Shown here: in pieces, positions 41,001 to 42,918 of the stretch
Position numbering within the stretch: position 1 is the stretch's first letter
How the letters are laid out: the number at the start of each line of letters is the position of its first letter
NCBI GenBank assembly: GCA_028819255.1
Contig: JAPPMB010000009.1
Location: forward strand, 1 to 56,521
Source: Bryobacterales bacterium
GTDB taxonomy: Bacteria > Acidobacteriota > Terriglobia > Bryobacterales > UBA6623
Length of the DNA: 56,521 nucleotides
Reading direction: 5' to 3'
The notes under the pieces: generated by a model
The model's input: the letters and a program-made list of their open reading frames with translations, nothing else
Told to the model about the DNA's origin: nothing
Database searches by the model: none
Program-made: the position numbers and the translations under genes

Positions 41001-41283
41001 GGATGGACGGACGAACCGACGCCGAGGAGTCGCGCTTCCTGCGGAACCCGGGTCGGCGAGGCAGGACCCTGGACCTCTTCCTCAAGGAAAGATCAAGCTC
41101 GGGCAAGACCGGAGGCGGCTCATTGCGCTTCCGGTTCCGGATCTTTTCGCGCACCTTGTCCGCCGTGGAGGCGTCCACCGAACTTGAATGGGACTTCGGT
41201 CCGGTGATCCCGAGCTCCCGGAGCACCGAGAGAATCTCCTTGGACTTGACTTCCAGCTGCTTCGCTAGCTCGTTGATTCGAAT
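38098..41283 (-). CDS. infB: Translation initiation factor IF-2, with predicted ATT start
   Basis: IF-2 is the GTPase that brings fMet-tRNA to the 30S subunit. From ATT the protein is 1061 residues: an N-terminal IF2_N helical domain (RINELAKQLEVKSKEIL), a long Pro/Arg-rich linker (about 60-430), a second IF2_N module (TVKELAEKLGIRASQIV), the G domain with GHVDHGKTS near residue 562 and NKID near 662, and the C-terminal fMet-tRNA-binding domains. The only standard start (GTG 41226) would remove the conserved first helix. The frame is bounded upstream by the nusA stop TAG itself, and AGGAGG stands 6 nt before ATT. ATT is therefore the best start. The gene follows nusA after 12 nt. Confidence 0.95.
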   Translation of the reverse strand: MRINELAKQLEVKSKEILSVLRELGITGPKSHSSSVDASTADKVREKIRNRKRNEPPPVLPELDLSLRKRSRVLPRRPGFRRKRDSSASVRPSIPVTGVGKGFRPPMGTFRPPVMAKKPPAGAVAQAAPVGPATLPVKPPQPVAPPAAIKPPVPPAVVPPSARLKPAQATRVSDLRSDGQSKPEPPPVTVMGPEARRPDINRLPGRPKTTPIPAGGPAPSIPVRGVQPAGPKIGSGAAAPPAVPRPSGLRPAAAPPKLSRPVAAKPASGPTVSKPKISKPPPRPPVPQTKTSPGLRTLGKQILPQATRPSVPARPAPPRPPITPRRPVRPTAVPGSPQPPRRPRRGVRPAMPVRPIRPAGAGPGRGRPGRPTPTKTNVLVPGRPIVPRHAPTNRIPGIPSPPPGAPRVYMPRPGGPGIRRGIPGRPPTGPGRPRGPGFRRPRPPQRRKRDLEALRENRFQKRRLKAEVPKAKNTEIFASDGTTVKELAEKLGIRASQIVKSLVEQGQFATINHPLELENIKRIAAHFGATATELTFEEEAVLDIDQDENLEDIEIRPPVVTIMGHVDHGKTSLLDAIRSTNVAGREAGGITQAIGAYHVTKDDKRIVFIDTPGHEAFTKMRAQGASVTDVVVLVVAADDGVMPQTVEAIDHAKSAKVPIIVAVNKIDVPKADPDRVRQQLADRGLVPEDWGGDTIFCPVSAKTHEGLDNLLEMINLVAEIRELKANPSRSAIGVVLEAKLDRGMGPVATVLTQNGTLRVGDTFVVGAVLGKVRAMMNDRGRKVKEAGPSSAVLVLGLGALAEPGDQLSVIKDTGRAKKIVEYREEKAREQAMAQTARVTLQQFQEQLAKGRAKELSIILKSDFQGSATVLQDTLAKLTSEKVKVRVIHSGVGAIKESDILLAITASAVVVGFNVRPERSAAALADREGIDIRLHTVIYELVDELKLALAGLLDPIRREEFLGRARVLEVFNITNVGTVAGCMLEEGVALSNASARLLRDNVVVHTGKLDSLRRFKDDVKEVRAGQECGMHFERYNDIKKSDEIELFKTIEIKQDINELIPV

Positions 41284-41295
41284 CGTTCTCCTCCT

Positions 41296-42918
41296 CTAGG
41301 CCTGACTCTCGGTCGCACCCACCGTACTCGGCTCGGCATCCGAGGAAGCAGGCTCGCCCGCTCCCGGCGTTCCGTCCGCAGCGGACTGGCCCCCGTCTTG
41401 CCCCGCTCGCGTGGACTGCTCCTCCTGGTGCGGTCCGCGGTATCGGTTCATTTTACCAAACCGCTCCAGTTCCTCCACGTCGAAGTCGATGTCGTCCTCG
41501 TCCTCCTCGCTGACCGATCCGGCCTCGGGGACTCCCGGCAACACCGGGGGCGTCGCGATGACTCCCGCAGCGGCTTCCGGCTCGGGTTCTCCGTCGCCCG
41601 CCGGCTCCGACTTCTCGTCGACGACGGCGGGAACTGCGCCCACGGTTCTTGCGAGATGGGAGTAGCACTGACGGACCGCATACCGGATCCGCTCAACCAG
41701 TTCGTCGCCGACGCCCGGGATTTCCATGATCCGCTCGGGCGTCATGTCGGCCAGGGCCTCCACCGTTGCTGCTCCGGACTCGATGAGCCGGTCGATCAGG
41801 CCCTCGCTCAGGCCATACTCGATGAGGTTGCTGACCGGAGTGCCGCCGCCGCTGATCGCAGCGTAGGCCTCCTCGATCTCCCTGCGCTTTTCGTCCTCGC
41901 TCTTGATGTCGATCCGCCAGGCGAGCAGCTTCGCCGCGAGGCGCACGTTCTGGCCCTTCTTGCCGATGGCAAGCGAGAGCTGCGACTCGTCCACGATGAC
42001 CTCCATGTGGCGCAGGTCAGGATCGAGGACGTTGACGCGGCTTACCCTCGCGGGATTCAGCGCCGTCCGGACCATGTCGATGGGGTTGTCGAGGAACTGG
42101 ATGATGTCGATCTTCTCGCCACGCAGCTCGCGGATGATCGTCTGCACGCGCATGCCCTTCATGCCGACACAGGCGCCGACCGCGTCGACGTCGCGGTCGT
42201 GCGACCGGACCGCGATCTTGGTCCGCTCACCCGCCTCGCGGGCGCACGCCTTGATCTCGACCGTCTTGTCGTAGATTTCGGGCACTTCCTGTTCAAACAG
42301 CCGTTTGACGAGCTCCTCGCTGGCGCGGGACGCAATCACGGCCGGTCCCCTGCCGGCCTTCTCAATCGCCTTGATCACGATGCGGAGCCGGTCTCCCGGC
42401 ATGTAGCTCTCGAGCCGGGACTGCTCGCGCCTCGGCATGCGCGCCTCGGTCCCGCCGAGCTCGACGATCAGGTCCTGCCCCTCGATCCGCTTGACGGTGC
42501 AGTACTCCATCGTGTTGACGCGGTCCTCGAACTCGGCGCACACCCGCTCCCGCTCGGCCTCCCGGATCTTCTGAAAGATCACCTGCTTGGCCATCTGGGC
42601 AGCGATATGCCCCATTCCCGAGAGCGACTTCCTGAAGCGGACCGTCGAGCCGATCTTCGCGCCGGCATCTCCGCGGCGGGCCTGCGCCAGACTGACTTCC
42701 TTGGTGGGGTTGGCCACGAGGTGTGTGACGGTCTTGACCGCGAAGACGTCAATGCCGCCGGTACTGGCGTTGATCTCGGCGATGAGGTCTTCCTCGGTCC
42801 TGTAGTGCTTGCGCACAGCGGCGACCATGGCGTCCTTCACCGCCTCCAGAACGATCTCCGGGTTGATGCCCTTGTTCTCGCTGAGCTGCTCGATTCCCGA
42901 CAAAATTTCCAGCGCCAT
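41296..42918 (-). CDS. nusA: Transcription termination/antitermination factor NusA
   Basis: NusA binds RNA polymerase and modulates pausing, termination and antitermination. The 540-residue protein has an N-terminal polymerase-binding domain (LEILSGIEQLSENKGINPE), an S1 domain (about 135-200, with VKRIEGQDLIVELGGTEA), two KH domains (VDAVGACVGMKGMRVQTI and LAIGKKGQNVRLAAKL), a helix-hairpin-helix repeat (MEIPGVGDELVERIR) and a long acidic, low-complexity tail (EEDEDDIDFDVEELERFG). It follows rimP after 27 nt. It is the likely regulator of its own operon through the leader terminator upstream of rimP. Confidence 0.97.
   Translation of the reverse strand: MALEILSGIEQLSENKGINPEIVLEAVKDAMVAAVRKHYRTEEDLIAEINASTGGIDVFAVKTVTHLVANPTKEVSLAQARRGDAGAKIGSTVRFRKSLSGMGHIAAQMAKQVIFQKIREAERERVCAEFEDRVNTMEYCTVKRIEGQDLIVELGGTEARMPRREQSRLESYMPGDRLRIVIKAIEKAGRGPAVIASRASEELVKRLFEQEVPEIYDKTVEIKACAREAGERTKIAVRSHDRDVDAVGACVGMKGMRVQTIIRELRGEKIDIIQFLDNPIDMVRTALNPARVSRVNVLDPDLRHMEVIVDESQLSLAIGKKGQNVRLAAKLLAWRIDIKSEDEKRREIEEAYAAISGGGTPVSNLIEYGLSEGLIDRLIESGAATVEALADMTPERIMEIPGVGDELVERIRYAVRQCYSHLARTVGAVPAVVDEKSEPAGDGEPEPEAAAGVIATPPVLPGVPEAGSVSEEDEDDIDFDVEELERFGKMNRYRGPHQEEQSTRAGQDGGQSAADGTPGAGEPASSDAEPSTVGATESQA

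What the first reader, a model, noticed from the sequence alone, without database searches (positions are those of the whole stretch)
41224..41298. infB appears to start at ATT
The conserved IF-2 N-terminus (RINELAKQLEVKSKEIL) can be reached only from ATT at 41281-41283. The same frame is closed by the nusA stop TAG five codons upstream, the next standard start is GTG 41226, 19 codons into the conserved helix, and AGGAGG lies 6 nt before ATT. An AUU start is known for infC, where IF-3 discrimination against it gives autoregulation. An AUU start on infB would put IF-2 under IF-3 control. That coupling is inference; the codon context is seen.
Basis: partly seen in the sequence, partly recalled or inferred. 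Interest (0 to 1): 0.78.

Follow-up and report, generated by a model that had tools for sequence, protein, structure and literature searches.

The report
IF2 gene lacking a normal start
In a group of uncultured Acidobacteriota, the gene for the essential protein-synthesis factor IF2 lacks a usual ATG, GTG or TTG start codon for its conserved beginning and likely starts at ATT, a weak start that would put IF2 production under the control of another factor, IF3.

Summary
In the window's only infB, the conserved IF2 N-terminus (RINELAKQLEV) is not preceded in frame by ATG, GTG or TTG; the nusA TAG closes the frame five codons upstream, and AGGAGG lies 6 nt before ATT. All 11 genomes of the genus, plus one genome of a second genus, have ACG-ATT here. 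The other six genomes of the family have TTG six or seven codons upstream; 56 of 57 readable genomes outside the family have ATG. Protein-level constraint begins about at ATT: codons 2-9 show 3 amino-acid changes among 22 nucleotide changes, the codons just upstream 25 of 41. A tree separates the two ACG-ATT lineages, so the normal start was probably lost twice.

I favour ATT on Shine-Dalgarno spacing, infC precedent and published IF3 rules. Control of IF2 by IF3 is inferred, not shown. Public gene models are truncated: 30 of 31 database proteins of the clade begin inside IF2.

The parts
41281..41283 (-). ATT, predicted infB start codon (favoured)
   Evidence: ATT in 12 of 12 genomes of two genera. 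It is the only all-ATT column among 19 invariant-Ile columns of infB; 6 are all-ATC and 12 mixed. Strongest Shine-Dalgarno register 6-9 nt upstream.
41284..41286 (-). ACG, in-frame rival start codon directly before ATT
   Evidence: ACG in 12 of 12 genomes. None of 15 invariant-Thr columns of infB keeps a single codon. The strongest Shine-Dalgarno register lies only 3 nt from it in 8 of 12 genomes.
41290..41295 (-). AGGAGG, Shine-Dalgarno-like sequence
   Evidence: No 16S rRNA was found in this assembly.
38098..41283 (-). infB (translation initiation factor IF2), read from ATT to the stop, 1061 codons
   Evidence: Two PF04760 domains. P0003, the database entry matching the window at 100%, carries PF11987, PF00009, PF03144 and PF22042 among others but starts far inside, at 652 aa.
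41227..41280 (-). Codons 2-19, between ATT and the first standard start; translated according to the pattern of substitutions
   Evidence: 14 amino-acid changes of 59 nucleotide changes, 0.71 expected if untranslated, p 1e-13; codons 2-9: 3 of 22, p 6e-8.
41224..41226 (-). GTG, first standard in-frame start (codon 20); rejected as the start
   Evidence: GTG in only 2 of 12 genomes at this column (GTT 6, ATA 2, GTA 1, CTC 1).
41296..42918 (-). nusA; its stop TAG 41298-41296 ends 12 nt before ATT, in the infB frame
   Evidence: ORF. In 9 of 11 genomes of the genus nusA instead runs through the infB start in another frame and ends in TGA, 14 nt from the first base of ATT.

Best explanation
The only infB copy found in this Bryobacterales genome has no ATG, GTG or TTG from which its conserved N-terminus could be made, and translation likely starts at the ATT codon at 41283-41281, which would make IF2 synthesis subject to repression by IF3. 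Predicted mechanism: ribosomes that finish nusA, or 30S subunits recruited by the strong AGGAGG, set fMet-tRNA (CAU) on AUU, where the third base pair is mismatched. IF3 destabilises such complexes, so IF2 output would fall when IF3 is abundant and rise when it is scarce, in parallel with infC, which in most genomes of the family also has an AUU-class codon at its start. Shown by sequence: absence of a standard start, conservation of ACG-ATT, protein-level constraint from codon 2 on, Shine-Dalgarno spacing, a full-length IF3 and a CAU initiator tRNA. Inferred: which of the two codons is used, coupling to nusA, and IF3 control.
For: ACG-ATT in 12 of 12 genomes (11 of the genus, 1 of a second genus), 7 of which have no ATG/GTG/TTG anywhere between the upstream in-frame stop and ATT. 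Codons 2-9 change as protein (3 of 22) while codons -8 to -2 do not (25 of 41). Shine-Dalgarno: the strongest register is 6 nt from ATT in 8 of 12, 7 in G011, 9 in G002, G009 and G033; for ACG these are 3, 4 and 6 nt. ATT is 8-22% of the Ile codons in these infB genes, yet invariant here. The infC start position, assigned by alignment and Shine-Dalgarno site, holds ATT in 12 and ATC in 2 of the 16 family genomes where infC was found, whereas infA starts at ATG in 18 of 18. IF3 of the own genome aligns over both domains to a solved IF3 (5lmn_X, E 6e-48); a CAU initiator tRNA was found in 16 of 18 genomes, own included. PMC10158994 (abstract): IF3 tolerates only Watson-Crick pairs at codon bases 1 and 2 but is laxer at base 3, which favours AUU over ACG. 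ACG to ATG is one C-to-T change, synonymous (AAC to AAT) in the nusA frame where nusA overlaps, yet ATG is in 0 of 12 genomes, and none of the 31 database proteins placed in the clade begins MIRINELA.
Against: ACG is as invariant as ATT and recurs in the second lineage G011. ATT is already the commonest codon at this column in the order survey (37 ATT, 18 ATC, 1 ATA, 1 CGA of 57), so its invariance is weaker evidence than codon usage suggests. In nine genomes the site is also nusA coding. In G002, G009 and G033 the strongest Shine-Dalgarno register suits ACG (6 nt) better than ATT (9 nt), though in G002 one of nearly equal strength lies 6 nt from ATT. One database relative, P0001, starts MRRRTIRINELA and so has a standard codon at -5; three close relatives (G015, G027, G035) share an in-frame ATG at -19, inside nusA. 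Nothing measures initiation or IF3 response.
Confidence: 0.64

Rival explanations
1. Translation starts at ACG 41286-41284, giving (M)IRINELA, with ATT as the second codon.
For: ACG 12 of 12, reached in two lineages that are not sisters. It keeps the Ile found before RIN in most relatives, and P0068, P0080 and P0087 outside the clade start MIRINELA. In G002, G009 and G033 the strongest Shine-Dalgarno register is 6 nt away.
Against: Spacing 3 nt in the strongest register of 8 of 12. Mismatch at codon base 2, which IF3 is reported not to tolerate (PMC10158994 abstract). No natural bacterial ACG start is known to me (recall, not searched). In g1 the ACG is also part of nusA AAC-GAT codons in 9 of 11, a separate reason for its conservation.
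Confidence: 0.24
2. IF2 starts inside, at the codon-10 TTG (the gene callers' choice) or at GTG 41226 (codon 20), and the part before it is not translated.
For: 20 of 31 database proteins of the clade are annotated from codon 10. GTG 41226 has AAGGAG 9 nt upstream in the window.
Against: Codons 2-9 evolve as protein (3 of 22 changes alter an amino acid, p 6e-8; codons 5-9 past the nusA overlap 3 of 16, p 6e-5). Codon 10 is TTG in only 6 of 12 (CTG in the window) and codon 20 is GTG in only 2 of 12.
Confidence: 0.04
3. IF2 is made by an upstream route: an in-frame start farther upstream within nusA, or read-through of the nusA TAG giving a NusA-IF2 fusion.
For: nusA and infB share a frame in G000, G005 and G017. 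Five of 12 genomes have some in-frame ATG or TTG at -13 to -52, one of them (ATG -19) shared by G015, G027 and G035, and P0001 has a standard codon at -5.
Against: The upstream codons -8 to -2 are not constrained as infB protein (25 of 41 changes alter the residue), the upstream stop lies at -5 to -53 depending on the genome, and 7 of 12 have no ATG/GTG/TTG before ATT. In most of the genus nusA ends in another frame.
Confidence: 0.05
4. Assembly or sequencing error in the window's contig has removed a normal start.
For: The genome is a 174-contig assembly. In G011 a TTG lies 19 nt before ATT, two bases off the frame of the TTG in its sister G029 (my reading), which an indel error could cause.
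Confidence: 0.01

Closest known systems
infC (IF3) with AUU start and IF3 autoregulation, Escherichia coli
   Same: Gene of an initiation factor with an AUU-class start and a Shine-Dalgarno sequence; IF3 discrimination is known for infC and predicted here (PMC1805508 and PMC5472188, passages).
   Different: infC regulates itself; here the target would be IF2, so the control would run between factors. IF3 control is not tested here.
sigR with GTC start repressed by IF3, Streptomyces (PMC5472188, passages)
   Same: A conserved non-standard start on a gene other than infC, mis-annotated in public genomes.
   Different: There IF3 repression and the role of the start codon were shown by experiment; the product is a sigma factor, not an initiation factor.
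pcnB (AUU, E. [quoted passage not shown]
   Same: Natural or proposed AUU or AUA starts; the S. aureus cases have extended Shine-Dalgarno motifs and about 10% of AUG reporter output (PMC13009471, passages; lepA and pcnB from PMC1780047, passages).
   Different: None is infB.
infB of the same family and order with TTG or ATG start
   Same: Same gene, same nusA-infB order where seen, same N-terminal sequence.
   Different: Six family genomes have TTG six (five genomes) or seven (G029) codons before the ATT site; 56 of 57 order genomes have ATG, 52 of them three codons before it.

Membership tests
Genes with AUU-class start codons | No ATG/GTG/TTG can produce the conserved N-terminus | tested here: met
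   none in the window; none in 7 of 12 genomes; in 5 of 12 only codons at -13 to -52, inside or near nusA (ATG -19 shared by three close relatives).
Genes with AUU-class start codons | ATT (or ATC/ATA) at the homologous start in relatives, with a correctly spaced Shine-Dalgarno sequence | tested here: met
   ATT 12 of 12, strongest register 6-9 nt upstream. ACG is equally invariant, so the test does not single out ATT.
Genes with AUU-class start codons | Initiation demonstrated at that codon (N-terminal peptide, toeprint or profiling) | not testable with these tools
   Needs protein or ribosome data.
IF3-discriminated genes (infC, sigR type) | Expression falls with more IF3 and rises with fidelity-weak IF3 or with an ATG start | not testable with these tools
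   Needs a reporter or cell-free assay.
IF3-discriminated genes (infC, sigR type) | Host has a two-domain IF3 and the standard CAU initiator tRNA | tested here: met
   IF3 of the own genome aligns over query residues 9-170 to 5lmn_X; CAU initiator in the own genome and in 16 of 18 genomes of the family.
infB / IF2 | IF2_N domains plus the GTPase core and C-terminal IF2 domains, downstream of nusA | tested here: met
   PF04760 twice; PF00009, PF11987, PF03144 and PF22042 precomputed for P0003; nusA upstream.

The most novel reading that the evidence does not exclude
In this lineage IF3 sets the level of IF2: infB has been placed, twice independently, under the same AUU-start discrimination that makes infC autoregulatory, giving a hard-wired IF3-to-IF2 circuit that is kept although ATG is one transition away.
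Probability: 0.4. Interest if true: 0.82.

Novelty: new member of a known kind. Interest (0 to 1): 0.62.

Why it matters
How cells keep the initiation factors in proportion to each other is only partly understood. If IF2 is translated from a codon that IF3 rejects, the two factors would be tied together at the ribosome itself, and the tie could be tested with a single-codon change. The case also shows that public gene models, which here begin only at later standard codons, cut the N-terminus off an essential protein in nearly all listed database members of a clade.

Tried and rejected
Rejected: start at GTG 41226 or at the codon-10 TTG. A second infB copy (both IF2_N matches of the genome lie in this gene). 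An initiator tRNA with a changed anticodon: the pattern gave CAU in 16 of 18 genomes; 4 further matches had CGC with changed flanks and look unrelated; G031 and G033 gave no match. NusA-IF2 read-through as a general explanation (frame differs between genomes). General loss of standard starts in the neighbourhood: in window 34001-48000 compared with nine loci, infB was the only frame I took for a real gene whose conserved N-terminus begins 19 or more codons before the first standard start; for infB six of nine loci align from codon 1-5 of the frame and three only from 313 or later; nusA and the gene at 38097-37774 align up to 8-9 codons before their first standard codon; several frames on the strand opposite known genes show the same pattern and were set aside by judgement. 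Non-standard starts in all initiation factors (infA is ATG in 18 of 18).

Led nowhere: no Rfam match in the window; no 16S rRNA in the own assembly, so the anti-Shine-Dalgarno core is from general knowledge; folding of the start region showed, by eye, no structure shared by the 12 genomes; two scripts for the infC start and one for infA found no motif and were rewritten; Hecht et al. 2017 is not held and was not used.

Limits: the order survey fetched 60 of the 182 non-family genomes, chosen by me from the listed places for spread over genera; 57 gave the motif, 3 (G069, G092, G134) did not and were dropped. infC was found in 16 of 18 family genomes (not in G019 and G031), and its start was assigned by alignment; G005, G009, G023 and G033 also have an in-frame ATG, GTG or TTG farther upstream of infC. 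The protein search scored 7975 candidates and listed 120 of 1182 hits; the top 50 went into the clade tree.

Full report
WHAT IS THERE. On the minus strand the window reads TAG-AGGAGG-AGAACG-ATT-CGA-ATC-AAC-GAG. TAG (41298-41296) ends nusA; the same frame continues into infB (38098-41283). No in-frame ATG, GTG or TTG occurs before GTG 41226, codon 20 from ATT. Both IF2_N (PF04760) matches found in the genome lie in this gene, so no other infB was seen. It missed that ACG (41286-41284), adjacent and in frame, would also reach the N-terminus.

WHO IT IS. The ten closest of 26 loci in named records are Bryobacterales, Bryobacteraceae or Terriglobia metagenome-assembled genomes. The genome database places the window in a family of 18 genomes and six genera. 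I fetched nusA-infB from the 17 others.

COMPARISON. All 11 genomes of the genus (g1) and the single genome of g2 (G011) read ACG-ATT-CG; the other six genomes of the family do not. Those six (g3, g4, g5, g6) have TTG six codons (five genomes) or seven codons (G029) before the ATT site; in g4 it overlaps the nusA stop as TTGA. Outside the family, of 60 fetched order genomes, 57 gave the motif: 56 have ATG (52 of them three codons before the ATT site), and one, G032, has CTG in the ATG place. In those 57 the codon at the ATT column is ATT in 37, ATC in 18, ATA in 1 and CGA in 1, so ATT is common there even as an ordinary Ile codon. That tempers the argument from its invariance.

IS THE UPSTREAM PART TRANSLATED? 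Across the 12 ACG-ATT genomes, codons 2-9 have 22 nucleotide changes of which 3 alter an amino acid, against about 70% expected without translation (p 6e-8). Codons 5-9, past the nusA overlap, give 3 of 16 (p 6e-5), and codons 2-19 give 14 of 59 (p 1e-13). Codons -8 to -2 read in the same frame give 25 of 41 (all). These are parsimony counts on one gene tree, so the p values are approximate. Constraint as infB protein therefore begins at or just before ATT. GTG at codon 20 is present in only 2 of 12 and TTG at codon 10 in 6 of 12. Seven of 12 genomes have no ATG/GTG/TTG between the upstream in-frame stop and ATT. The other five have one or more: TTG -13 in G002, ATG -19 in G015, G027 and G035, ATG -36 in G009, and further ATGs at -45 and -52 in G015 or G027.

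ATT OR ACG? Both are 12 of 12. Among invariant-residue columns of infB, only 1 of 19 Ile columns is all-ATT (this one; 6 are all-ATC, 12 mixed) and 0 of 15 Thr columns keep one codon. For ATT: the strongest Shine-Dalgarno register is 6 nt away in 8 of 12, 7 in G011, and 9 in G002, G009 and G033 (in G002 a register of nearly equal strength lies at 6), against 3, 4 and 6 for ACG; the infC start position, assigned by alignment and by its Shine-Dalgarno sequence, holds ATT in 12 and ATC in 2 of 16 family genomes (G005, G009, G023 and G033 also have a standard codon farther upstream in frame); and IF3 is reported to tolerate only Watson-Crick pairs at codon bases 1 and 2 but weaker ones at base 3 (PMC10158994, abstract and passages), which fits AUU and not ACG. 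For ACG: it keeps the Ile present in most relatives, and it recurs in two lineages. I put ATT at 0.64 and ACG at 0.24.

THE nusA OVERLAP. In 9 of 11 g1 genomes nusA runs through the site in another frame and ends in TGA, 14 nt from the first base of ATT. There ACG-ATT-CG is also nusA coding (AAC GAT TCG), so conservation is not due to infB alone. In G000, G005 and G011 nusA stops earlier and the sequence is still ACG-ATT; in G000 and G005 the old overlapping frame is still recognisable by eye (my reading), so its loss may be recent. The overlap makes translational coupling likely, which is inference. It also gives an argument: AAC to AAT, silent in nusA, would turn ACG into ATG. That is seen in 0 of the 12 genomes, and none of the 31 database proteins placed in the clade starts MIRINELA.

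HISTORY. A tree of NusA plus IF2 (19 rows) puts G017 (TTG) beside g1 and G029 (TTG) beside G011, with full support for both groupings; the 12 ACG-ATT genomes are not one clade (AU p 8e-12). The fewest changes are two, hence two probable losses of the standard start; one earlier loss with two later returns to TTG would need three. G011 is one genome; a TTG lies 19 nt before its ATT, two bases off the frame used by its sister (my reading), so an indel error there is not excluded.

CONTROLS. infA starts at ATG in 18 of 18 genomes. The initiator-tRNA pattern found a CAU anticodon in 16 of 18 and nothing in G031 and G033. IF3 of the own genome aligns over both domains to solved IF3 structures.

ANNOTATION. 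Of the 50 best database hits put in a tree, 31 fall in the g1 clade (support 0.93); 20 of these begin at codon 10 (MEVK.. or MEVP..), 10 farther in, and 1 (P0001) upstream, as MRRRTIRINELA. The entry matching the window at 100%, P0003, is 652 aa instead of 1061. P0001 shows that a standard codon at -5 occurs in one relative; I did not obtain its DNA.

LITERATURE. Four searches of the open library listed no paper that, from titles, starts of abstracts and the passages I read, describes a non-standard infB start. Passages were read in PMC1805508, PMC1780047, PMC5472188, PMC13009471 and PMC6511841, and the abstract plus passages in PMC10158994; the other papers listed were seen only as search listings, and most subscription papers are not held. 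Known AUU-class or related starts include infC, pcnB, cvfC1, ccpN (AUA), proposed lepA, and sigR (GTC), the last shown to be repressed by IF3.

VERDICT. A real, conserved, probably twice-evolved loss of the standard start of infB, likely replaced by ATT. IF3 control of IF2 is the natural prediction and is directly testable; it is not shown.

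Noticed in passing
L109 (infC of the own genome, start region before 308); L112 (G002): The codon at the place of the infC start ATT is GCT in the own genome and GTT in G002 (6.19-Mb contig), after an intact AAGGAGG. In the own genome no ATG, GTG, TTG or CTG lies between the upstream stop and the conserved IF3 start. Either an even weaker infC start or, for GCT, an assembly error.
   Followed up: partly
L127 (G032): infB of another Bryobacterales family has CTG where 52 of 57 relatives have ATG (CTG AGT AAA ATT CGC), with no ATG/GTG/TTG back to the in-frame stop: a further non-standard infB start.
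   Followed up: no
window 41296-41600 and L085-L094: The nusA C-terminal tail varies in length and frame within the genus: in 9 of 11 genomes it overlaps infB, while in G000 and G005 it stops earlier.
   Followed up: partly
P0118: A database IF2 outside the genus also begins at codon 10 (MEVKSKAILD), possibly a further lineage without a standard start.
   Followed up: no
window 39269-41092: The linker between the two IF2_N domains of infB is a long Pro/Arg-rich stretch; a second frame on the same strand (41092-39269) is open over 607 codons without any ATG, GTG or TTG, probably a by-product of composition.
   Followed up: no
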